64,000 bases of DNA from positions 62,001 to 126,000 of the forward strand of contig NZ_BBYK01000040.1 of NCBI RefSeq assembly GCF_001570365.1, read 5' to 3'. Source of the DNA: Microtetraspora fusca (lineage in GTDB: Bacteria; Actinomycetota; Actinomycetes; Streptosporangiales; Streptosporangiaceae). A program made the translations under genes and the position numbers. The notes under the pieces are model-generated. The model had not been told where the DNA came from. It worked only from the letters and a program-made list of their open reading frames with translations, and did no database searches. Below are positions 6,962 to 51,313 of this stretch, piece by piece (position 1 is the stretch's first letter; the number at the start of each line of letters is the position of its first letter).

Positions 6962-6989
6962 GGGCCGCTCCCGTACGGGGAGGCGGCCC
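6962..6989. other. Hairpin in the mraZ-rsmH spacer
   Basis: In the 263-base gap between rsmH and mraZ, GGGCCGC (6962-6968) pairs with GCGGCCC (6983-6989), and between them lies the palindrome CCCGTACGGG. The transcript of either strand could fold it. It could attenuate read-through from mraZ, protect a processed end, or mark a terminator before a separate rsmH promoter. No U-run follows on the minus strand, so a classical terminator is unlikely. Nothing else is recognised in this gap. Confidence 0.4.
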
Positions 6990-7138
6990 GCCCGGCCAGG
7001 TCCCCATCCGCGTTGCCGGCCGCGGAACCTGACACCGGGGAAGGTGCATCAGGTGCCGCGGGGAGCGGGTGGAGACCTCGCCGAACGTCACCGACGGGTC
7101 TTTCCTGATCTCGCCGACGCGAGATCCGATCTCATGAA

Positions 7139-31094: not shown

Positions 31095-31167
31095 GCACGG
31101 GTGGCGTCGCCGCCGGCCGGCCCGGCTACGCCGGACCCGCCGTGAAACGGCCGGTCACCCGTTCGCG

Positions 31168-31320
31168 CGCTTCCTCCCATCCGGACTATGACCGTCGGTC
31201 CTGGAATCGCACCAGGTCCACCGGCCGATGGCTTCGGCCGGGTCGCGGACTTCACCGCGTCCCCGAGAGGGGACGGATGTCACCGCCGGTTCGGAATTTC
31301 ACCGACCCCGGAGCACGCTT
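31168..31320 (-). ncRNA. FMN riboswitch (RFN element) of the riboflavin operon
   Basis: The minus strand shows the conserved RFN core in order: GTGCTCCGGGGTCGGTGAAA, then TTCCGAACCGGCGGT, AGTCCGCGACCC, GGTGGACCTGGTG, TTCCAGGACCGACGGT and finally CATAGTCCGGATGGGAGGAA. These invariant blocks identify the FMN aptamer. It begins about 300 bases before the ribD start. Binding of FMN should shut off the five-gene operon including the transporter. A TTGCCA/TAAG-like promoter may lie at about 31360-31394, but it is weak by eye. Confidence 0.97.
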
Positions 31321-39884: not shown

Positions 39885-40514
39885 TCACTCCGTCCCGGCG
39901 TCCTTCTCGGGACCGTCCTTCTCGGGACCGTCCTTCTCGGGACCGTCCTTCTCGGGACCGTCCTTTTCGGTGTCGCCGGTGGAGGGAAGCGGGGACGCGT
40001 TCGTCAGGATGCGGACGAAACGCGCGCCCTCCGGCGCCGGGGCGCGCCCGGCGATCCGATCGGCGTACGGCTCCATGAGTTTCCTGAATGCTTCGCCCAG
40101 TTCGTCGAGCTCCTCGGCCGTCATAGGAGCCGTGACGGTGGAGGTGAATCCGGCCTTTCGCCACTCCTCCGGCGCGTGCTTGCGGCCTTCGATCCACTCC
40201 AGCATGCGGACGGCCTCGCGTTCGATGTAGACCCGCTCGAACTCGGCCGCCGCCGGGGTGCCCGGAGACCACTGCTGCTCGACGTCGACGATCTTCCATG
40301 GCCGCTCCCGCTGGTCGGTCGACGAAGGGGCCTCGGCCACGAAGCCGTACTTGGCGAGCTGGCGCAGGTGGAAGGAACAGGACGCCTGGCTGGTGCCCAG
40401 ATGTCGCGCGCAGGTCGCCGCCGTGGCGGGTCCGATACGGGCCAGCAAGTCGAGCAGATCCAGTCTCAGAGGGTGCGCCACTGCCCGCATGGCGCGAGGG
40501 TCGGTGACTCGCAT
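39885..40514 (-). CDS. ArsR-type winged-helix regulator with GPEKD tail
   Basis: 209-residue transcription factor. The N-terminal winged helix reads PRAMRAVAHPLRLDLLDLLARIGPATAATCARHLGTSQASCSFHLRQLAKYGFVAEAP, the HTH_20/ArsR-like form common next to MFS genes in actinomycetes. The second half (EEWRKAGFTSTVTAPMTAEELDELGEAFRKLMEPYADRI) is a helical domain, and the tail holds four GPEKD repeats. No metal-binding Cys motif of classical ArsR is seen, so a non-metal signal is likely. ATG 40514 lies six bases after a -10 element, implying a leaderless mRNA. It divides the two peptide-importer operons and could regulate them, but that is inference. Confidence 0.88.
   Translation of the reverse strand: MRVTDPRAMRAVAHPLRLDLLDLLARIGPATAATCARHLGTSQASCSFHLRQLAKYGFVAEAPSSTDQRERPWKIVDVEQQWSPGTPAAAEFERVYIEREAVRMLEWIEGRKHAPEEWRKAGFTSTVTAPMTAEELDELGEAFRKLMEPYADRIAGRAPAPEGARFVRILTNASPLPSTGDTEKDGPEKDGPEKDGPEKDGPEKDAGTE
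39900..39959 (-). repeat. 15-bp tandem repeat encoding GPEKD x4
   Basis: Four consecutive 15-bp units, identical except for one or two bases, encode GPEKD near the C-terminus of the ArsR-type protein; a degenerate DTEKD precedes them. The unit keeps frame, so copy number could vary without loss of the protein. Confidence 0.9.
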
Positions 40515-40598: not shown

Positions 40599-40723
40599 TT
40601 GGCCGAGGGGCCACTTCGCCGGAGGGAACCCCCGGTCCTCGCGAAGCCCGCTTCGCCGGACGTCCGGTCCTCGCTTCCTTCCGCGCCGCCCCCTCAATCC
40701 CGGCGAACGCTCGCGGACAGCGC
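40599..40723 (+). repeat. Dispersed intergenic repeat, copy A
   Basis: This 125-bp stretch matches the reverse complement of 50393-50519 over its full length, roughly 80% identical by eye with two small indels. Shared blocks include ACTTCGCCGGA, GCTTCGCCGG, GTCCTCGCT and GACAGCGC. Internal GAAGC...GCTTC and CCGG...CCGG pairs suggest RNA or cruciform structure. Neither copy contains a plausible gene. Confidence 0.75.
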
Positions 40724-40873
40724 ACCCGGGAACCCGGGCCGGCCGGCCCCCCGCGACGCCGAGCCCCGAAAAGGACTGTCCGAAACACGCGGTTAAATCA
40801 CTCCGATTCGACTGCGGCAATTCCCCGAAAGCCGCGATTCCGGCGAATTGCACCGCAACATCATCCGGATTGC

Positions 40874-40908
40874 GTCACGAAATCGTGACATACGCTCATA
40901 CGTATAGT
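40874..40908 (+). promoter_or_regulatory. Palindromic operator and -10 of peptide ABC operon 2
   Basis: GTCACGA-AA-TCGTGAC (40874-40889) is a perfect 7-bp-arm palindrome; TATAGT (40903-40908) is a strong -10, so the palindrome covers the -35 position. The matching TCACG/CGTGA element precedes operon 1 (32506-32544). The leader to ATG 41103 is about 190 bases, AT-rich, without a recognised gene or riboswitch. Confidence 0.6.
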
Positions 40909-41102
40909 CGACATGGTCTCTCGCAACATCCACCCAGGTCAACGCCTCACCTCGACACAAGGTGATTTACTTTGGAGCACGAACCAGGCAAGAAATAAAT
41001 GACGTCCGCCCTCTCATTGACCCACGGAAAATAACTTGCCAAAGTTCCCTCAAGTCGGGATTTCTACCGACCTTTGATGTCCCTCTCGGGAGCTCCATCG
41101 CG

Positions 41103-42110
41103 ATGACGATCCCTTCAGAGACCACCGCAGAGCCGACGGCGGCGATCGCACCCGCCGCGTCCGGCGGAGACCTGGTCGGACGATCACCCGGCCAGCTCAT
41201 GTGGCGGCGCTTCCGCCGGGACCCGACAGGCATGATCTCGGCGGTCATCGTCCTGCTCTTCATCCTGGTCGCCGTCGCCGCCCCGCTGATCTCCCTGCTG
41301 TACGGCAAGGACCCCTACACGACCTACGGCCAGGACCGGCCCGGCCTGCTGAACGACTTCGGCTTCCCGCTCCTGCCCAACGGCGGCATCAGCTCGGAGT
41401 TCTGGTTCGGCATCGAGCCCGGCCTCGGCCGCGACGTCTTCATGCAGCTCGTGTACGGCATCCGCACCTCGCTACTGATCGCGCTGGCGGCCACGGTCGC
41501 CACCACGCTGATCGGCATCGTGATCGGCATCGTCGCCGGCTACGTGGGCGGCAGGACCGACTACCTCATCGGCCGCGTGATCGACGTCCTGCTGTCGTTC
41601 CCCTCGACGCTCTTCATCATCGCGTTCATGCCGGTGCTGGAGAACATCATGGTCAAGCCGGAGGAGGAGACGCCGGTCTGGCTGCGCGCGGCGGCGCTGA
41701 TCACCTTCCTGACGGTCTTCGGCTGGGCCGGGCTGGCGCGTCTGCTGCGCGGCAACGTGCTCTCCCTGCGCGAACGGGAGTTCGTCGAGGCGGCCAAGGT
41801 CACCGGCGCCTCGCCGGCCCGGATCGTCTTCCGGGAACTGCTGCCCAACCTGTGGACCCCGATCCTGATCCAGTCGACGCTGCTGCTGCCCGCCCTCGTC
41901 ACCTCCGAGGCCGCACTGTCCTTCCTGGGCGTCGGCATGATCGAGCCGACCCCGGACTGGGGCCGCATGTTCCTGCGCGGCACCGAGGTCTACACCGACG
42001 ACATCACCTACCTGATGTTCCCCGGCATCGCCCTGCTGATCTTCGTCATCGCGTTCAACCTGCTCGGAGACTCCGTGCGCGACGCCTTCGACCCCAAGAT
42101 CAGACGCTGA
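41103..42110 (+). CDS. ABC importer permease, DppC family, operon 2
   Basis: 335-residue permease that, unusually, is first in its operon. After a long N-terminal tail the first helix is MISAVIVLLFILVAVAAPLISLL, then a loop (GISSEFWFGIEPGLGRDVFMQLVYGIRTSLLIALAATV). The EAA loop is LRGNVLSLREREFVEAAKVTGASPARIVFRELLPNLWTPILIQ, and the end is GDSVRDAFDPKIRR. ATG 41103 follows GGGAG by 11 bases. The binding protein follows after 36 bases, then the other permease and two ATPases. Confidence 0.92.
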   Translation: MTIPSETTAEPTAAIAPAASGGDLVGRSPGQLMWRRFRRDPTGMISAVIVLLFILVAVAAPLISLLYGKDPYTTYGQDRPGLLNDFGFPLLPNGGISSEFWFGIEPGLGRDVFMQLVYGIRTSLLIALAATVATTLIGIVIGIVAGYVGGRTDYLIGRVIDVLLSFPSTLFIIAFMPVLENIMVKPEEETPVWLRAAALITFLTVFGWAGLARLLRGNVLSLREREFVEAAKVTGASPARIVFRELLPNLWTPILIQSTLLLPALVTSEAALSFLGVGMIEPTPDWGRMFLRGTEVYTDDITYLMFPGIALLIFVIAFNLLGDSVRDAFDPKIRR

Positions 42111-42146
42111 CCGCGTCTCCCGCAGATCCCCCAGATTAGGAGCGAC

Positions 42147-43937
42147 ATGTCCATCCGCAAGCGTTCGACGGTGGCCGTTCTCGCCGTCGGCGTCCTGGCT
42201 CTCACCGGCGCCTGTGCCAAGGGCGGCGGAGGCGGGACGCCCGCCGACGCCGGCAACCCGTCCGGCGCCGCGTCGGACCGGGGGCCGTCCGCCAACACCG
42301 CGCCGAAGATCACCATCGGCACGGCCGACGACTCCAAGGGGCCCGCGATCGCGCCGGAGGGCGTCGTCAAGGGCGGCACGATCACCATGATCGACCGCGA
42401 CGACTACGCCCACCTCGACCCGGGCCGCATCTACTCCAACACCGAGGGCAACTTCGCCCTGGTATACGCCCGCCAGCTCACGGGTTACAAGCGGATCGCG
42501 AAGAACGACTACAAGCTGGTCGGCGACCTCGCCACCGACACCGGCCAGGTGTCCGACGGCGGCAAGACCTGGAAGTTCACGCTGAAGGACGGCGTGAAGT
42601 GGCAGGACGGCACCCCGATCACCTCCGGTGACGTGAAGTGGTCCATCGAGCGCCTCTTCGCCTCCTACAGCACCGAGGGCGCCCCCTACGTCCAGCAGTG
42701 GCTGACGCAGGAGAACTACAAGAAGGCCTACAAGGGCCCCTACGACGGCAAGCACCTCGACAACGTCGAGACTCCCGACGACAAGACCATCGTCTTCAAG
42801 TTCAAGGAGCCGCACGCCGACGCGAACTTCGCGCTGGCGATGACGACCTACGGCATCGTGCCCAAGGCGAAGGACACCAAGGAGAAGTACGACAAGGAGC
42901 CCTTCTCCAGCGGTCCGTACATCATCGCCAACCACGTCACGGACAAGTCGATGGATCTGGAGCGCAACCCGAACTGGGACCCGGCCACCGACCCGATCCG
43001 CGGCGCGTACCCGGACAAGTGGCATCTGGAGTTCGGCTACCAGGCCCTCCAGGTCACCGACCGGTTCATCGCCGACGCGGGTGACGACAAGAAGACGTTC
43101 AGTTTCTACACGCACGTCGCACCGGAGCGGCTCCAGCAGGTGTTGTCCGACCCCGCCCTCAAGCCGCGCCTGTTGAGCCAGCCGTCACCGTACGCGGACT
43201 ACTACTACTTCAACCTCGACCGGGTGAAGGACATCAAGATCCGCCAGGCGATCAACTACGCGTGGCCGGCCAAGCAGATCCAGCAGATCGGAGGCGGACC
43301 GGCCTCCTCGGTGATCTCCACCACGATCCTCAACCCCACCCTGGCGGGCTACCAGGAATACGACCTCTTCAACAAGAGGGCCAAGCCCGAGGGTGACGTC
43401 GAGAAGGCGAAGGAGCTGCTCGCCCAGTCGAGCAACCCGCACCCGACGATCGTCTACGCCTACAACCAGACGCCGACCCAGGAGCGCGTCACCGTCGCGA
43501 TCAAGACGGCGCTGGAGAAGGCCGGCATCAACGTCGTCGCCAAGCCGCTCAACCCCAAGACCTGGTACGACTCGGTTACCAAGATCGACAACGGGTTCGA
43601 CATCTACTGGGGCGGCTGGGGCGCCGACTGGCCCAACGCGGCCACGGTCTTCCCGGTGATCTTCGGACCGGTCGTCGAGGGCGGGCAGAACGTCTCCCAC
43701 TTGAAGGACCCGGAGATCGAGGCGGAGATCAAGCGCATCCAGGGCATGAGCGACGCCAACGAGGCGAACAAGGCGTGGGGCGCCCTCGACAAGACCATCA
43801 TGGAGAAGGTGACGCCGCTGATCCCCGACGTGAACAGCATCTCCAACCAGCTGAACGGCTCGCTGATCGGCGGCGCCGAGATCGACCCGATCAGCTGGGT
43901 CGTCTCCCCGAACACCATCTTCGTGAAGCAGCAGTAG
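42147..43937 (+). CDS. ABC importer substrate-binding lipoprotein, operon 2
   Basis: 596-residue SBP_bac_5 receptor. The signal peptide MSIRKRSTVAVLAVGVLALTGACAKGG has its lipobox Cys in TGAC. The mature protein shows GGKTWKFTLKDGVKWQDGTPITSGDVKWSIERLF, SSGPYIIANHVTDKSMDLERNPNW and a late GFDIYWGGWGADWPNAATVFPVIFG, which is typical of peptide-binding members. It is clearly a different sequence from the operon 1 receptor, so the two operons likely take different ligands. A hairpin follows the stop. Confidence 0.93.
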   Translation: MSIRKRSTVAVLAVGVLALTGACAKGGGGGTPADAGNPSGAASDRGPSANTAPKITIGTADDSKGPAIAPEGVVKGGTITMIDRDDYAHLDPGRIYSNTEGNFALVYARQLTGYKRIAKNDYKLVGDLATDTGQVSDGGKTWKFTLKDGVKWQDGTPITSGDVKWSIERLFASYSTEGAPYVQQWLTQENYKKAYKGPYDGKHLDNVETPDDKTIVFKFKEPHADANFALAMTTYGIVPKAKDTKEKYDKEPFSSGPYIIANHVTDKSMDLERNPNWDPATDPIRGAYPDKWHLEFGYQALQVTDRFIADAGDDKKTFSFYTHVAPERLQQVLSDPALKPRLLSQPSPYADYYYFNLDRVKDIKIRQAINYAWPAKQIQQIGGGPASSVISTTILNPTLAGYQEYDLFNKRAKPEGDVEKAKELLAQSSNPHPTIVYAYNQTPTQERVTVAIKTALEKAGINVVAKPLNPKTWYDSVTKIDNGFDIYWGGWGADWPNAATVFPVIFGPVVEGGQNVSHLKDPEIEAEIKRIQGMSDANEANKAWGALDKTIMEKVTPLIPDVNSISNQLNGSLIGGAEIDPISWVVSPNTIFVKQQ

Positions 43938-43944
43938 GCCACGC

Positions 43945-43976
43945 CTCCGGGGCGCCTCGCGCGAGGCGCCCCGGAG
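43945..43976 (+). terminator. Strong hairpin after binding-protein gene, operon 2
   Basis: CTCCGGGGCGCCTC (43945-43958) and GAGGCGCCCCGGAG (43963-43976) form a perfect 14-bp stem with a GCGC loop, in the short gap before the downstream permease. As in operon 1 it is placed to raise receptor mRNA over downstream genes. Confidence 0.7.
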
Positions 43977-43994
43977 CCCCGCACAGGAGCTCCA

Positions 43995-44975
43995 GTGCTT
44001 CGTTTCCTGACTCGCAGAGGTCTCGGCGCGGCGTTCATCCTTCTGATCGTCGCCGCCGTGACGTTCTTCCTCTTCTTCGCCGTACCCGGCGACCCCGCCC
44101 GGCTCGCCTGCGGCAAGGTCTGCCCGCCCGAGACGCTCGTCCAGGCGAGGCACAACCTCGGCCTGGACCAGCCGATCTTCGTCCAGTTCGTCGAGTGGGT
44201 CTCCGGGATCTTCGTCGGCCGCGACTACGAAGAGCTGGGGCACTGCCCGGCTCCCTGCCTGGGCTATTCGTTCGTGAACCGGGAGCCGGTCTTCGGCACG
44301 ATCGTCGACCGGCTGCCGGTGACGCTCTCGCTGACCGTCGGCGCGGCGATCATCTTCCTGCTCTTCGGCGTCGGCACCGGCATCATCGCCGCGCTGAACC
44401 AGGGCAAGGCGCTCGACAAGGTCGCCAGCGTGTCGTCCCTGATCGGCGCCTCGGTGCAGATCTACTTCGTCGGCACCCTCGCCATGTACTTCCTCGTCTT
44501 CCAGTGGCAGATCATCGAACGGCCCCGCTACGTGCCGATCACCGAGGACCCGATCGGCTGGGCGTACGGCCTGCTGCTGCCGTGGATCGTCCTGGCGATC
44601 ATCTTCACCGCCAACTACACCCGCATGACCCGCTCGACCATGGTGGAACAGCTCAGCGAGGACTACGTCCGCACGGCACGCGCGAAGGGCATGTCCGCGC
44701 GGACGGTCGTGCTGCGGTTCGCGCTGCGCGGCACGCTCACCCCCATCGCGACGATCTTCGGCATCGACCTCGCCACCCTCATCGGCGGCGCGATCATCAC
44801 CGAGACGACCTTCAGCCTCCAGGGCATCGGCCGCCTGTCGATCCAGTCGGTCAACAACGACGACCTGCCGATGCTGATGGCCACCGTCCTGCTCGCCGCC
44901 GCCGCGATCGTCGTCTTCAACGTCATCGTCGACGCGCTCTACGCCGTCATCGACCCGCGCGTCCGCCTCAGCTAG
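43995..44975 (+). CDS. ABC importer permease, DppB family, operon 2
   Basis: 326-residue permease of normal family length. N-terminus LRFLTRRGLGAAFILLIVAAVTFFLFFAVPGDPA, EAA loop MVEQLSEDYVRTARAKGMSARTVVLRFALRGTLTPIATIFGIDLATLIGGAIITETTF and end YAVIDPRVRLS. A Cys-containing periplasmic loop (ACGKVCPPE, GHCPAPCLG) is distinctive. GTG 43995 follows AGGAGCTCC. The next gene begins 10 bases after the stop. Confidence 0.94.
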   Translation: MLRFLTRRGLGAAFILLIVAAVTFFLFFAVPGDPARLACGKVCPPETLVQARHNLGLDQPIFVQFVEWVSGIFVGRDYEELGHCPAPCLGYSFVNREPVFGTIVDRLPVTLSLTVGAAIIFLLFGVGTGIIAALNQGKALDKVASVSSLIGASVQIYFVGTLAMYFLVFQWQIIERPRYVPITEDPIGWAYGLLLPWIVLAIIFTANYTRMTRSTMVEQLSEDYVRTARAKGMSARTVVLRFALRGTLTPIATIFGIDLATLIGGAIITETTFSLQGIGRLSIQSVNNDDLPMLMATVLLAAAAIVVFNVIVDALYAVIDPRVRLS

Positions 44976-44985
44976 GAGCCATCGC

Positions 44986-46043
44986 TTGACCGCCGTCACG
45001 ATCACCGAGACCGGCCGGGGCCGCCGGAGCGACTCGTTCCTGTCCGTCCAGGACCTGCACGTCTCCTTCCAGACAGAGGACGGGGTCGTCAAGGCGGTGG
45101 ACGGGCTCTCCTTCGAGGTCGAGAAGGGCACCACCCTCGGCATCGTCGGCGAGTCCGGCTCCGGCAAGTCCGTGACCAACCTGACGATCCTCGGGCTGCA
45201 CAGCAGCGAGCAGGCCGAGATCCGCGGCGAGATCTGGTTCGAGGACCAGGAGCTGGTCGGCGCGAGCCGCGGCGCCCTGGAGCGGCTGCGCGGCAACCGC
45301 ATCGCCATGATCTTCCAGGACCCGCTGACCGCGCTCTCGCCGTTCCACACCGTCGGCCGGCAGATCGGCGAGGTGTACCGCAAGCACAAGGGCGCGAGCA
45401 GGCGCGAGGCGCGCGACCGGGCGGTCGAGATGCTCGAACGCGTCGGCATCCCCAACGCCAAGGTCCGGGTGGACGACTACCCCCACCACTTCTCCGGCGG
45501 CATGCGGCAGCGCGTGATGATCGCGATGGCGCTGGTCTGCGACCCCGCGCTGGTCATCGCCGACGAGCCGACCACCGCGCTCGACGTGACCGTCCAGGCG
45601 CAGATCCTCGACCTGCTCAAGGACCTCCAGGACCAGATGGGCACCTCCATCATCCTGATCACGCACGACCTCGGCGTGGTCGCCCAGACGGCGCACAACG
45701 TCCTCGTCATGTACGCCGGCCGGGCCGCCGAGCGCGGCACGGTGCGCGAGGTCCTCGGCGCGCCCCGGCACCCGTACACCTGGGGGCTGCTGTCCTCGGC
45801 CCCGCGGCTCGGCTCGTCCGTGGACGTGCCGCTCAAGCCGGTGCGGGGGACGCCGCCGAGCCTGCTCAACCCGCCCTCCGGCTGCCGCTTCCACCCTCGC
45901 TGCGACTACCGCAACCAGGTCGGCCCCGACCTGTGCTCCACGGAGCTGCCGGAGCTGTCGCCGGAGCGCGGGCACGGCGACGCGTGCTATCTCACCCTGA
46001 CGCAGAAGCAGGAGATCTTCACCCAGCTCATGGAAGGCCGCTG

Positions 46044-46044
<1 letters not shown>
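44986..46044 (+). CDS. ABC importer ATPase, DppD type, operon 2
   Basis: 352-residue ATPase starting at TTG 44986, supported by GGAG seven bases upstream. Walker A is [19 protein letters not shown]-loop MIFQDPLTALSPFHTV, signature [40 protein letters not shown] and switch [11 protein letters not shown]. The C-terminal Cys tail is GCRFHPRCDYRNQVGPDLC. Its stop shares a base with the next ATG (TGATG). Confidence 0.95.
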
Positions 46045-47072
<1,028 letters not shown>

Positions 47073-47094
47073 CTGCGTCCACGGACCTGCCGGG

Positions 47095-47138
47095 CCCGTG
47101 TTTTCTTGAGCACGGGATGAACCGCGGACTGTCCGCGG
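47095..47138. terminator. Bidirectional terminator region between ABC operon 2 and tricorn gene
   Basis: Two hairpins lie in the 88-base convergent gap: CCCGTG (47095-47100) with CACGGG (47111-47116) around a TTTTCTT loop, and CCGCGGAC (47122-47129) with GTCCGCGG (47131-47138). Position between convergent genes supports termination in both directions. Confidence 0.55.
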
Positions 47139-47160
47139 CCTCCCGTACTCTCACCACTCG

Positions 47161-50100
47161 TCACCGCAGCGGCGGCAACTCCGGCGGGGTCGCCGGACCC
47201 CTCTCCTCCAGCGCCGCCAAGGCGAGCTCCACCGCCCGCGCCAGCTGCGGATCCCGCCCGGCGACCAGGTCCTGCGGCGTCACGATGACCTCGACGTCCG
47301 GGACGACGCCGTGGTTCTCCACGCCCCACCCCTCGCCCTCCAGCCAGAACGAGTACCGCGGCTGAGTGACGACGGTCCCGTCCACAAGCGAGTACCGCAT
47401 GTCGATGCCGATCACGCCGCCCCAGGTCCGCGTGCCCACGAGCGGCCCGATGCCGCGATGCTTGATCCCGGCGCTGACGATGTCCCCGTCCGACCCGGCG
47501 AACTCGTCGGTGACGGCCACAATAGGCCCGCGAGGCGAGTCGTCCGGGTACCGCATCGGCTCGTACCCCCGGGCCAGCGACCACCCGGTCACCCGGCGCT
47601 GCAGCTTCTCCAGCACCAGCTCGGAGACATGACCGCCGCCGTTGTCGCGGACGTCCACGATGAGCCCGTCGAAACCCATCTCGGCACGCAGATCCCGGTG
47701 GAACTGCGCCCAACCGTTGGCCACCATGTCCGGCACGTGCAGGTAGCCGAGCCGCCCGCCCGACGCCTCACGCACGAACGCCCGCCGTCCGGCCACCCAG
47801 TCGTGGTACCGCAGCGGCGTCTCGTCGGCGACGGGCGTGACGACGACCCGGCGGGTCTCGCCGCCGGAGCCGGGCTGGACGGTCAGCTCCACGGGCCGCT
47901 CCGCCGCGCCGGACAGCAGGGCCAGCGGCCCGCGGACCGGGTCGACCCGGCGCCCGCCCACGGCGACGATCGCGTCGCCCTCCCGGACGGCGACGCCGGG
48001 CGCGAGCAGCGGCGAGCGGGCCTCGTGGTCGGAGGACTCCCCGGGCAGGATGCGGCTGATCCGCCACACTCCGTTCTCGTCCCGGGCGAGGTCGGCGCCG
48101 AGCTGGCCCTGGCGGCGCTTGGGATCGCGGGCGGCGCCGTTGGGTCGCGCGTAGGCGTGGGAGGTGGCCAGCTCACCCTGGACCTCCCAGAGCAGGTCGA
48201 TCAGCTCGGAGTAGGTGCCGATCCGCTCCACGAGCGGGGCGTAGCGGTCGAGCGTGGCCTGCCAGTCGACGCCGTTCATGTCCGCGCGCCAGAAGTGGTC
48301 GCGCATGAGCCGCCCGGCCTCGTTGTAGGCCTGCCGCCATTCGGCGACCGGGTCGATGGTCACGGCCACACGGTCCAGGTCGATGGTGACGACCTCGCCG
48401 TCCTCTCCGGTGGCGCGGGTCTGCAGGCCGTTCTTGCCGGTGGCCACCAGGCGCGTGCTGTCGCCGCTGACCTCGAAGGCCCGGAACTCCCTGCCCAGCT
48501 CGCTGACCTTGCGCTTGGTCAGGTCGTAGCGTTCCAGGATCGGCGCGCCGGGCTCGGTGCCGTCGCCGAGCTGGCCGTTGAGCGGATGGCGCAGCCACAG
48601 CAGGCCGTCCTTGGCGGCACGCAGGTTGGAGTAGGTGCCGGCGGGTACCGGCACAGGCACGATCCGCGCCGCCAGCCCGTCGGCATCCACCTCGGTCACG
48701 GGCGGCGTGTCGGACGTGCCATCGTTCCCGGCGTCCGGACTGGCGTCGGCCTCCCCGTTGAAACCGCGGCCCGCCAGCGAGGGGTCGAACGGCGAGGGCG
48801 TGGTCGCCTTGAGCGGCACCAGGTACGGCCGGCCGCTGCTGGGGAAGGACAGGTCAAAGACGTGGGCGTCGTAGACCGGGTTGAACGTGCGGTCAGACAG
48901 GAAGGCCAGGTACTTGCCGTCCTCGGTGAAGGACGGGCTGTAGTCGTTGAAGCGCGGCGGCGTCACCTCGATCGCGGTGCCGCCGTCCACGCGGGCCAGC
49001 TTGAGGTGGCAGCGCTCGGCTTGGTAGGCATGCGCCCACGCGAGCCAGGCCGAGTCCGGCGAGAATGTCAGCTGCCTCACGTCGCCGTGAGTGGTGCGGT
49101 CCAGCTCGCGGACGTTCCCGAAGTCGACGTCCACCACCAGGAGCCGCCCGTCGTGAGTGGCGACCGCGGCGTGCTTGCCGTCCGGCGCGGCGGCCAGGTC
49201 GAGCACCCGGCCGAGCTGACCGGCGGCCAGCGTGCGAATCTCACCGCCGGGTGCGCCGATCTCCAGCGCGTCCTCGCCGGAGGCGTCCGACACCCAGACG
49301 ACCCGGCCGGCGTCGTCGAGAGGCCGCGGCAGCCGTACCCGGACGCCGGGCTCGGCGCGCAGCACGCCCGCTGGGCCGTCGCGGTGGGTCAGCCAGTGGG
49401 CGGTGCCGCGGATCTCGATCACGCTGGCCCGCCCGGTACGGTCCGGCGCGAAACTGTCGACCTTGCTCGGCGCCGGCCGCTTGGCCCGGGCCGGGCGCGG
49501 CCCGCTCAGGGTGAGGTCCAGCTTGTACGGCTCTGCTTCCAGGCTCTCCAGCAGCCACAGCTCGGCGCCGAGGCTGTAGACGACGCGGGAGCCGTCGGAT
49601 GCGGCATGGCGCGCGTAGAAGCCGCGGTGCGTGGTGTGCTGGCGCAGGTCCGAGCCGTCGGGCAGGCAGGAGTACAGGTTGCCGTCGCCGTCCGTGTCGG
49701 CGAGGAAGGCCAGGCGCTCCCCCACCCACATGACCGACCAATGCTGCGCAGAGTTGTCGGCGAACAGGCGGGTGAACTCGCCGTCACCCGTGGCGTCCAC
49801 CCAGATCTTGGCCGCGGTACCGCCGCGGTAACGCTTCCACTGCGACGGTTCGCGCCACACCGCCGAGACGGCCGCCACCTTGGGGCCGCTGACCGCGGCC
49901 TCGCTGACCCTGCCGTACGGCAGAGCCTTCGCCTGGCCGCCGTCCAGCGGAACCGCGTAGGCCCACAGCCGGGTGCGTGAGCCGTGGCCCGCGGCGGTGA
50001 CGGCCAGCACGTTCCCGTCCTCGGTCCAGCCCCGCACGCCCGTCATGGCGTTGCCCCAGTGCGTGAGCCGCTCGCTCTCGGCGCCCTCCAGATCGGCGGC

Positions 50101-50310
50101 GAACACCTCGGGCTCGCCCTCGCGGGTGCTCGTCCACGCGATGTGCGTGCCGTCGGAAGAGAACCGGGGGTGGGAGACCGCGACCTGGTCAGCCGTGAAC
50201 CGCCAGGCCCTGCCGCCGCCCACGGGCGCCAGCCAGACGTCGTCGTCCGCTACGAAGGTGAGGAGGTCGTCATGCAAGTGGGGGTATCTCAGATATGCAC
50301 CATTTGCCAC
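47161..50310 (-). CDS. Tricorn-type protease (S41)
   Basis: Large cytosolic protease of 1049 residues that degrades oligopeptides made by the proteasome or other proteases. The first half is beta-propeller sequence with WD/DPP-like repeats (PRFSSDGTHIAWTSTREGEPEVF, YSPSFTEDGKYLAFLSDRTFNP). A PDZ domain follows (LAPGVAVREGDAIVAVGGRRVDP) and then the S41 catalytic core. H718 lies in GELATSHAYARP and S940 in DEFAGSDGDIVSAG, matching the tricorn catalytic His and Ser. There is no signal peptide. It sits beside two peptide importers. The 246-base upstream gap contains the second dispersed repeat copy. Confidence 0.93.
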   Translation of the reverse strand: MANGAYLRYPHLHDDLLTFVADDDVWLAPVGGGRAWRFTADQVAVSHPRFSSDGTHIAWTSTREGEPEVFAADLEGAESERLTHWGNAMTGVRGWTEDGNVLAVTAAGHGSRTRLWAYAVPLDGGQAKALPYGRVSEAAVSGPKVAAVSAVWREPSQWKRYRGGTAAKIWVDATGDGEFTRLFADNSAQHWSVMWVGERLAFLADTDGDGNLYSCLPDGSDLRQHTTHRGFYARHAASDGSRVVYSLGAELWLLESLEAEPYKLDLTLSGPRPARAKRPAPSKVDSFAPDRTGRASVIEIRGTAHWLTHRDGPAGVLRAEPGVRVRLPRPLDDAGRVVWVSDASGEDALEIGAPGGEIRTLAAGQLGRVLDLAAAPDGKHAAVATHDGRLLVVDVDFGNVRELDRTTHGDVRQLTFSPDSAWLAWAHAYQAERCHLKLARVDGGTAIEVTPPRFNDYSPSFTEDGKYLAFLSDRTFNPVYDAHVFDLSFPSSGRPYLVPLKATTPSPFDPSLAGRGFNGEADASPDAGNDGTSDTPPVTEVDADGLAARIVPVPVPAGTYSNLRAAKDGLLWLRHPLNGQLGDGTEPGAPILERYDLTKRKVSELGREFRAFEVSGDSTRLVATGKNGLQTRATGEDGEVVTIDLDRVAVTIDPVAEWRQAYNEAGRLMRDHFWRADMNGVDWQATLDRYAPLVERIGTYSELIDLLWEVQGELATSHAYARPNGAARDPKRRQGQLGADLARDENGVWRISRILPGESSDHEARSPLLAPGVAVREGDAIVAVGGRRVDPVRGPLALLSGAAERPVELTVQPGSGGETRRVVVTPVADETPLRYHDWVAGRRAFVREASGGRLGYLHVPDMVANGWAQFHRDLRAEMGFDGLIVDVRDNGGGHVSELVLEKLQRRVTGWSLARGYEPMRYPDDSPRGPIVAVTDEFAGSDGDIVSAGIKHRGIGPLVGTRTWGGVIGIDMRYSLVDGTVVTQPRYSFWLEGEGWGVENHGVVPDVEVIVTPQDLVAGRDPQLARAVELALAALEERGPATPPELPPLR

Positions 50311-50392
50311 ATCCGCACCCTATGTCGATCAAGTCCTTCCTGCTGGAGGATTTCCAGACCGAGGCTCCGGACCTAATGGGGTGTATACGGAC

Positions 50393-50519
50393 GCGCTGTC
50401 GGCAAGCGTTCACCTGGATCGAGGGAGCGGAGCGGAAGGGAGCGAGGACTGGAAGGCCCGGCGAAGCTCGCTTCACGATGACCGGAGGTTCCTTCCGGCG
50501 AAGTGACCGACCCGGCCAA
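50393..50519 (-). repeat. Dispersed intergenic repeat, copy B (inverted)
   Basis: Reverse-complement counterpart of 40599-40723, about 127 bp. It lies in the gap between tricorn and rpe. Copy B retains CTTCGCCGGA, CCGGTC, GAAGC-GA-GCTTC and the GACAGCGC end. No open reading frame with gene-like codon use crosses it. Confidence 0.75.
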
Positions 50520-50541
50520 CGCCAGGTCGTGTCTGACACTC

Positions 50542-50561
50542 CCTAGTGCCGTGGCACTAGG
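50542..50561 (-). terminator. Compact hairpin at the end of rpe
   Basis: CCTAGTGCC (50542-50550) and GGCACTAGG (50553-50561) are perfect complements around GT, so the folded form has seven to eight pairs and a small loop. It spans the rpe stop codon and is the likely 3' end of the minus-strand housekeeping operon. Confidence 0.6.
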
Positions 50562-51225
50562 CCTGCTGGGCGGCCGCGGCGAGCGCCCGCAGGTCGCGTA
50601 CGGCCTTGGCCGCGTCCTCCGCGCCGTAGACCGCGCTGCCGGCCACGAAAACGTCGGCCCCGGCCTCCGCGCAGCGCTCGATCGTCTCGGCGGAGACGCC
50701 GCCGTCCACCTGCAGCCACACCTCGCCGCCGTACTTCTCGATGAGCGCGCGGGCGCGCGACAGCTTGGGCAGCACCACGTCAAGGAACTTCTGGCCGCCG
50801 AAGCCGGGCTCGACCGTCATCACCAGAAGCATGTCGATCTCGGGCAGCAGGTCCTCGTAGTAGTCCACGGGGGTCGCCGGGTTGAGCGCGAACCCGGAGC
50901 GCGCGCCCGCGGAGCGGATGGCGCGCAGCGTCCGCACCGGCGCCTTGGCCGCCTCGGCGTGGATCGTCACGCTGCCCGCGCCCGCCTCCGCGTACGACGG
51001 CGCCCACCGGTCCGGGCTCTCGATCATGAGATGGCAGTCGATCGGGAGCGACGTCGTCTTGAGCAGCGACTCGACGATGGGCAGGCCGAGCGTGAGGTTG
51101 GGCACGAAGTGGTTGTCCATGACGTCCACGTGCAACCAGTCGGCGACGCCCTCCACCCGGGTCGCCTCGTCGGCGAGCCTGGAGAAGTCTGCGGACAGGA
51201 TGCTGGGCGAGATCTGTACGGCCAT
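50557..51225 (-). CDS. rpe: Ribulose-phosphate 3-epimerase
   Basis: TIM-barrel enzyme interconverting ribulose-5-P and xylulose-5-P. The 222 residues include [66 protein letters not shown] and [10 protein letters not shown], containing the metal His/Asp residues and the phosphate-binding GG. ATG 51225. It is the last gene of the run after rsmB, 88 bases away. Confidence 0.97.
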
Positions 51226-51313
51226 GATGCCCGAGTTTAGCCGGGTCGGCTCCCGGACCCGCCGCGGGTTCCCCCGGCGGCGGGCCCCGTCCCGGCCACG
51301 CCCGCGGCCCGTC

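What the first reader, a model, noticed from the sequence alone, without database searches (positions are those of the whole stretch)
40599..50519. A 125-bp dispersed intergenic repeat in two inverted copies
Copies at 40599-40723 and 50393-50519 align end to end at about 80% identity, lie only in gene-free DNA and contain potential stem pairs. They flank the segment with operon 2 and the tricorn gene. This looks like a genome-wide small repeat family or structured RNA element not covered by standard annotation, and inverted copies could permit inversion of the 10-kb segment.
Basis: partly seen in the sequence, partly recalled or inferred. Interest (0 to 1): 0.75.

Follow-up and report, generated by a model that had tools for sequence, protein, structure and literature searches.

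The report
IS630-type miniature transposon landing on stop codons
The repeat looks like a worn-out, protein-less jumping element of a known bacterial kind; its target is the four-letter site CTAG, which in this genome survives largely as the stop codon of genes, so it sits just behind genes without breaking them.

Summary
In detail: 106 of 128 aligned columns match, inverted, between genes. The copies belong to a dispersed family: at least 18 places with element ends plus 4 core-only places in this Microtetraspora genome. Best reading: MITEs of an IS630 (Tc1/mariner-type) insertion sequence. The 25-bp left end (up to 3 mismatches) occurs in 112 of 297 family genomes; some inverted pairs, 1244-1271 bp apart, flank an IS630 transposase, others are 91-148 bp apart, at CTAG sites. 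One copy has clean empty CTAG-type sites in three of three relatives. Against: within single host copies the two ends match only weakly, and no IS with matching ends was found in the host. Structured RNA is not supported; nor is inversion, though the test was weak. A twist: CTAG is 18-fold depleted (68 seen, 1215 expected in 464 kb), 27 of the 68 being gene stops; 11 of 14 testable copies abut a gene's stop within 4 nt. Insertion at CTAG restores the stop. Beside copy 2 a 17-bp CTAG-bounded palindrome recurs at stop codons.

The parts
40599..40723 (-). MITE copy 1 (left end at the high coordinate; left end repeat about 40713-40726, GGTGCGCTGTCCGC; no CTAG left)
50393..50519 (+). MITE copy 2; left end GCGCTGTCGGC; right end repeat not recognisable, palindromes follow in its place
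   Evidence: half-length orthologous copy in G001
50522..50546 (.). 25-bp unit CCAG-GTCGTGTCTGACACTCC-CTAG: 17-bp imperfect palindrome between target-like sites; also at G000 C45:214926 and (one base different) C50:158282, and in G002 C30
50543..50560 (.). 18-bp perfect palindrome CTAGTGCCGTGGCACTAG whose last CTAG holds the epimerase stop codon; the only place in the genome with the pattern TAGTGCC...GGCACTA
50557..51225 (-). ribulose-phosphate 3-epimerase gene; its TAG stop lies in the CTAG at 50557-50560

Best explanation
The repeat is a MITE: a short element without a transposase gene whose ends are bound and moved in trans by an IS630-family (Tc1/mariner-type) transposase. Shown by sequence: shared left and right ends across copies, CTAG or near-CTAG beside them, clean empty sites for one copy, and IS630 elements in related genomes with a like 25-bp end and CTAG target. 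Inferred: the transposase cuts the element out and joins it at the TA of a CTAG, copying TA (or CTAG) to the other side. Because CTAG is its own reverse complement and is restored at both joins, a gene whose stop codon is the TAG of the target keeps that stop on whichever side it lies. In this genome CTAG is rare in genes, and 40% of the sites counted are stop codons, so surviving copies sit directly behind genes. Full-length copies are 79-88% identical to copy 2, their ends have decayed and no matching IS was found, so they are probably inactive fossils, at least two of them older than the split from M. niveoalba.
For: At least 25 matches in the host genome (40 of 73 first-look candidates scored). 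More complete copies run from CTAG-TGCGCTGTCC... to ...GGACACCC(C)A-CTAG. The left-end pattern with up to 3 mismatches occurs in 112 of 297 Streptosporangiaceae genomes; I see one control hit in the 297 rows. Inverted pairs 1256, 1271, 1244 and 1266 bp long with CTAG on both sides enclose a long ORF (L156, L157, L158, L180); three of these proteins (L156, L157, L180) were scanned and score as IS630 transposase (NCBIfam NF033545, 175.8, 166, 137.7 bits, cut-off 100; Pfam DDE_3, HTH_29, HTH_32). Other pairs are 91-148 bp long, recurring within G082, G099 and G217. Of 110 distinct ends in loci L126-L205, 53 follow exact CTAG and 88 are within one mismatch. The left ends of 14 host copies agree with one IS end at 14-22 positions (10 of 14 at 18 or more), the right ends at 12-20. 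Elements with the same ends and core occur in another genus, g79 (L149, L150, L167, L175); L087, the same contig as L175 by length and match, is named Microbispora. Empty sites at the L009 locus in G001, G002 and G003: TGGTAG-CTAG (CTAT in G002)-CGG. CTAG-stop orthologues without element: L018 site in G001 and G003, L003 site in G003. Stop-codon adjacency 12 of 28 ends against 15 of 1484 shifted sites; CTAG background. Similar elements lie in 142 plasmid records, 134 of them Streptomyces; the two that I opened are annotated 'IS630 family transposase'.
Against: Within single host copies the two ends, compared over 26 bp, agree at 13-19 positions, while 200 shuffles per copy average 12.8-15.4 and reach 17-20: weak inverted repeats, in no copy beyond every shuffle. 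No IS with matching ends was found in the host: its six matches to the IS630 query are 32-44% identical, three of them cut by a stop, and where ends could be defined they are a different repeat; 108 contigs may hide one. Transposition was not observed. Of five sites aligned, only L009 is clean; L006, L002, L013 and L015 are too diverged to show an exact join, and even at L009 the sites beside the element read CTG and CTAA, so an exact duplication is not seen and TA cannot be told from CTAG. The 14-base end with up to 2 mismatches is hardly enriched (237 against 209 control hits). Both window copies are degenerate.
Confidence: 0.85

Rival explanations
1. A structured RNA or 3'-end RNA element (terminator, mRNA stabiliser) kept by selection.
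For: Copies lie directly behind genes; GC-rich stretches can pair.
Against: No more stable than shuffled sequence on either strand (z 0.02 to 1.27); a two-sided change in 1 of 31 pairs; no Rfam gathering-level match there; of the 9 ends lying exactly at a stop, 3 are left and 6 right ends, so no fixed orientation; orthologous genes in relatives do without it.
Confidence: 0.06
2. MITE moved by another transposase family with CTAG targets (for example an IS5-type element).
For: A MITE with ends like an IS5-type element also uses CTAG (MITEPsy1, passages of PMC3189936); CTAG duplication is not distinguishable from TA here; match to the IS630 ends is imperfect.
Against: Like ends enclose IS630 transposases in L156, L157 and L180. 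Loci of the IS5-type (DDE_Tnp_4) hits in the genus showed no pair of ends, with strict patterns only.
Confidence: 0.06
3. The inverted copies serve as a recombination switch inverting the 10-kb segment.
For: Copies are inverted and flank the segment.
Against: Longest exact run 12 bp; same orientation in three of three relatives, which is weak because no complete pair was seen in them.
Confidence: 0.02

Closest known systems
RUP of Streptococcus pneumoniae (107 bp, proposed to be moved by IS630-Spn1)
   Same: Short, no transposase gene, ends like those of an IS630 element, TA target (passages of PMC2229807 and PMC3049150)
   Different: Host group; RUP is densest 50-150 bp from genes and its IS is in the genome, whereas here copies sit on or near the stop codon and no cognate IS was found; sequences not compared
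ERIC and Correia/NEMIS repeats
   Same: Small repeats with TA at the ends and terminal repeats (table in PMC2229807, passage)
   Different: Other hosts; effects on RNA are reported for them, no sign of such here
ISY100 (IS630/Tc1/mariner of Synechocystis)
   Same: 24-bp end repeats, 30 bp of each end enough for activity, cut-and-paste into TA (passages of PMC2170065); the mechanism borrowed here
   Different: Full insertion sequence, biochemically tested
BOX and SPRITE repeats of pneumococcus
   Same: BOX encodes the stop codon of 36 annotated genes and SPRITE clusters at 3' ends of convergent genes (passages of PMC3049150)
   Different: There the repeat supplies the stop; here the target is the stop and is restored
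MITEPsy1 of Pseudomonas syringae
   Same: 100-nt MITE inserting at CTAG or YTAA with a 4-nt duplication; transposition shown (passages of PMC3189936)
   Different: Ends like ISPsy2, an IS5-type element

Membership tests
MITE (non-autonomous derivative of an insertion sequence) | Short, no transposase gene | tested here: met
   14 copies of 69-181 bp between hand-set target sites, too short for a transposase; window copies also
MITE (non-autonomous derivative of an insertion sequence) | Terminal inverted repeats | tested here: inconclusive
   Consensus ends TGCGCTGTCCGCGAACGTTCACCGGG / TGGGGTGTCCACGAACCTTGGCCGGG agree at 20 of 26 (counted by eye), but single host copies do not beat the best shuffle. 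Clear 25-bp repeats at both ends in related short elements (L185, L194)
MITE (non-autonomous derivative of an insertion sequence) | Insertion polymorphism: empty target site in relatives | tested here: met
   L009 site in three of three relatives; 4 other aligned sites lack the element but are not clean
MITE (non-autonomous derivative of an insertion sequence) | Target-site duplication | tested here: inconclusive
   CTAG or one-step forms beside the ends, rarely identical on both sides; TA against CTAG cannot be told
IS630-moved element | Ends shared with an IS630 element | tested here: met
   Left-end pattern (up to 3 mismatches) flanks IS630 transposases in related genera; left ends agree at 14-22 and right ends at 12-20 positions with one IS end
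IS630-moved element | (supporting, not defining) IS with matching ends in the same genome | tested here: not met
   None found around the host's DDE_3 and protein matches; a fossil family can outlive its parent
IS630-moved element | Mobilised by the transposase | not testable with these tools
   Needs an in vitro or in vivo assay
Structured RNA family | Known family or conserved structure with covariation | tested here: not met
   (9 sequences only)
RUP / ERIC / Correia | Sequence homology to that family | not tested
   Compared by properties read in papers only

The most novel reading that the evidence does not exclude
In GC-rich actinomycetes CTAG has been cleared from genes and survives largely as stop codons, so IS630 elements and their MITEs live in a stop-codon niche: every insertion rebuilds the stop on both sides and leaves another CTAG, so further elements stack on the same spot. 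The 17-bp CTAG-bounded palindromes at stop codons would be the end point of this process, either excision footprints or the smallest elements still able to spread, and they would shape the 3' ends of genes genome-wide.
Probability: 0.35. Interest if true: 0.55.

Novelty: new member of a known kind. Interest (0 to 1): 0.36.

Why it matters
It adds an IS630-derived MITE family in Microtetraspora and Microbispora; searches with Streptomyces, actinobacteria and Microtetraspora as terms listed no paper that by title or abstract start describes one (Streptosporangiaceae itself was not a term). More general is the link between target depletion and insertion site: because CTAG is scarce and largely confined to stop codons, a simple 4-bp target rule becomes a harmless landing site behind genes. 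That predicts where IS630 elements should be found in any CTAG-poor genome and can be counted directly.

Tried and rejected
Structured RNA: folds, Rfam, RNAalifold, rejected. Inversion: synteny in three relatives, no sign, weak test. Active preference for stop codons: not needed. Nine of 14 copies have a stop exactly at the target site (6 TAG, 2 TGA, 1 TAA) against 27 of the 50 background CTAG sites not inside ORFs (TAG only). One search gives 0.15 for 10 or more of 14 at that rate and 0.017 against all 68 sites; 10 was a round figure between the 9 exact and 11 near cases. The family-wide excess (17 of 53 CTAG ends against 6 of 82 control CTAG ends) can likewise come from loss of insertions inside genes. 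IS5-type transposase (DDE_Tnp_4) loci as source: no paired end with strict patterns. The repeat on plasmids: no match; an exact left-end pattern and the 25-bp palindrome in viral contigs: none. The 18-bp palindrome as a repeat family: one place, though a like stretch without the second CTAG lies at L013. Clean empty site for copy 1 in G002: not seen there, but the flanks are too diverged. Four of the 18 places with element ends (the two window copies, L011, L020) were left out of the stop-codon test because one or both boundaries could not be set. L004 and L010 were but left out of the query, for brevity.
Full report
WHAT IS THERE. Copy 1 (40599-40723) lies between an ArsR-type regulator and an oligopeptide permease gene; copy 2 (50393-50519) lies between the ribulose-phosphate 3-epimerase gene and the tricorn gene.

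A DISPERSED FAMILY. In the host genome (9.02 Mb, 108 contigs) copy 2 has 25 matches at E 0.01, a lower bound because 40 of 73 first-look candidates were scored. Read with their flanks these are 18 places with at least one recognisable element end (20 rows, two places giving two rows each) and 4 places (5 rows; L024 and L025 seen only in the alignment) that share only the core. With a more complete copy as query, two genus mates give 6 and 5 rows, some of them core-only, one gives none, and 37 genomes of other genera give none at E 1e-6 with up to 20 candidates scored each. The genus is Microtetraspora: G001 shares a 22,230-base contig and its match with M. niveoalba NBRC 15239; M. malaysiensis and a Microbispora each hold a copy.

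ANATOMY. More complete copies read CTAG-TGCGCTGTCCRCRnACGTTCACCGGGATCGAGGGAGCGG... core ...GAAGTGACCGACCCGGCCAAGGTTCGTGGACACCCCA-CTAG. The sites beside the ends are CTAG or variants (CTGG, CCAG, TCAG, CTAA and others). Lengths between hand-set sites were 69-181 bp in 14 copies. Internal length varies by deletions in the core. The consensus ends agree with each other at 20 of 26 positions by eye, but in single copies the agreement is only 13-19 of 26, where shuffles average 12.8-15.4 and reach 17-20. The terminal repeats of this family are thus decayed, and the case for them rests on the consensus and on relatives.

THE PARENT ELEMENT. A 25-base pattern of the left end with up to 3 mismatches occurs in 112 of 297 Streptosporangiaceae genomes; in the 297 rows I see one hit for the control, the pattern read backwards. 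Several hits are inverted pairs: 1256 bp (L156), 1271 bp (L157), 1244 bp (L158) and 1266 bp (L180), each with CTAG outside both ends and a long ORF between. Three of these proteins (not that of L158) were scanned: all three pass the NCBIfam IS630 transposase cut-off (175.8, 166 and 137.7 bits against 100) and match Pfam HTH_29, HTH_32 and DDE_3. Other inverted pairs are 91-148 bp long and recur in G082, G099 and G217: short elements with the same kind of ends. In another genus (g79; L149, L150, L167, L175) copies carry the same ends and core as the window repeat. Of 110 distinct ends in loci L126-L205 (ends within 300 bp of a locus edge were left out), 53 follow exact CTAG and 88 are within one mismatch. 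Like elements lie in 142 plasmid records, 134 of them Streptomyces; the two that I opened are annotated 'IS630 family transposase', and in both my end pattern recovered only one end, after CTAG.

NO PARENT IN THE HOST. The host's six matches to the IS630 query are 32-44% identical, three of them with a stop inside. Around them, and around the DDE_3 hits, no pair of ends of this kind was found; L214/L219 has a different end (GTGGCCCGTCAC...). In M. niveoalba two small transposase remnants lie beside ends of the right kind with 5 mismatches (L217, L220). The full-length host copies are 79-88% identical to copy 2. Copy 2 and the L010 copy have counterparts at the same sites in M. niveoalba (the second by eye). 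I infer fossils of an IS once present in the genus.

EMPTY SITES. Joined flanks of 12 copies were searched in the genus; five sites with joined-flank matches in relatives were aligned. At the L009 site G001, G002 and G003 all lack the element and read TGGTAG-CTAG-CGGAGC (CTAT in G002), while the host reads TGGTAG-CTG-[element]-CTAA-CGGAGC. The L006, L002, L013 and L015 sites lack the element in the relatives aligned, but their flanks are too diverged for an exact join. At the L018 site two of three relatives, and at the L003 site one of three, have the gene ending in CTAG with no element.

STOP CODONS. For 14 of the 18 places both boundaries could be set. In 11 of the 14 (12 of 28 ends) a coding-like ORF stops within 4 nt of the boundary; at sites shifted 60-900 bp into the flanks the same test was met 15 times in 1484. 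At 9 ends the stop is exactly the target site: 6 TAG, 2 TGA, 1 TAA (one, at L009, in a weak ORF of 69 codons). The TGA at L002 stands where G003 has TAG in CTAG. Examples are the genes ending RESRATEFAR*, RRDGYKLIFG* and KAIVRRVIYR*. The background explains this: 464 kb of the host (20 stretches of 20 kb and the window) hold 68 counted CTAG sites, 1215 expected from base composition; 27 are stops of coding-like ORFs, 18 lie inside such ORFs and 23 elsewhere. Among the 50 sites not inside ORFs, 27 are stops, close to the 9 of 14 seen. So targeting of CTAG plus loss of harmful insertions is enough; no special attraction to stops is needed. The element leaves such genes whole because CTAG is restored on both sides. 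ORFs were called by length and third-position GC, not from an annotation.

STACKED PALINDROMES. Copy 2 lacks a recognisable right end. In its place follows CCAG-GTCGTGTCTGACACTCC-CTAG-TGCCGTGGCA-CTAG, the last CTAG holding the epimerase stop. The first unit occurs again between CTAG sites at C45:214926 and, with one base different, at C50:158282 in the host, and in G002 (one search lists only part of its 72 CTAG pairs, so this is a lower bound). Both of these other host copies begin exactly at a gene's TAG (frame open for 366 codons at C50, and for 642 codons to the edge of the fetched stretch at C45); at the G002 copy the test shows no coding-like ORF. The second unit has one place in the genome. 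I read these as remnants or miniature relatives of other CTAG-targeting elements stacked on one stop codon; this is inference, and no full-length element with these tips was found, nor was a genome-wide search for one made.

RNA AND INVERSION. Folding energies equal those of shuffles (z 0.02, 0.52, 0.37, 1.27), 1 of 31 consensus pairs shows a two-sided change in 9 copies, and Rfam at gathering level gave only an FMN riboswitch and mraW elsewhere in the window. The 10-kb segment is collinear with M. niveoalba over 40933-51239, and the operon has the same orientation beside the epimerase in G002 and G003, where the tricorn gene is missing from this place. As no complete pair of copies was seen in these relatives, this says little about inversion in the strain itself.

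KNOWN KINDS. Passages read in PMC2229807, PMC3049150, PMC3189936 and PMC2170065 describe RUP, ERIC, Correia, BOX, SPRITE, MITEPsy1 and ISY100. The repeat fits the RUP pattern: a MITE using IS630 ends and TA-containing sites. For the stop-codon point, five searches listed no paper that by title and abstract start describes it; subscription papers are mostly not held, so this is weak evidence of novelty. That BOX repeats supply stop codons is in print.

Noticed in passing
window 50522-50560: Stacked CTAG-bounded palindromes of 17 and 10 bp between MITE copy 2 and the epimerase stop codon; the 17-bp unit recurs at G000 C45:214926, C50:158282 (one base different) and G002 C30, the two host copies exactly on a gene's TAG stop.
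   Followed up: partly
host genome, CTAG N6-30 CTAG: 72 CTAG pairs 10-34 bp apart where about 5 are expected from CTAG density in the 464-kb sample; clustering in mobile or AT-richer regions was not ruled out.
   Followed up: no
window 47074-50556: The tricorn gene with MITE copy 2 is absent between the ABC operon and the epimerase gene in G002 and G003; in G002 a stretch 96% identical lies on another contig (C2), closer than the flanking genes (91-92%), suggesting relocation.
   Followed up: partly
L021, L022, L023, L057, L060, L063: Other repeats share the MITE core (GAGCGAGGACCG...AGCGAAGGCCCAGCGAAGCGGGCTTCGCGAGGACCG) but lack its ends; which captured which is unexplained.
   Followed up: no
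host genome (464 kb sampled): CTAG is 18-fold below the composition expectation: 68 sites against 1215, 27 of them gene stops.
   Followed up: yes
window 39899-39973: Tandem array of a 15-bp unit CGTCCTTCTCGGGAC.
   Followed up: no
window 31163-31320 and 6978-7094, minus strand: FMN riboswitch and mraW RNA matches.
   Followed up: no
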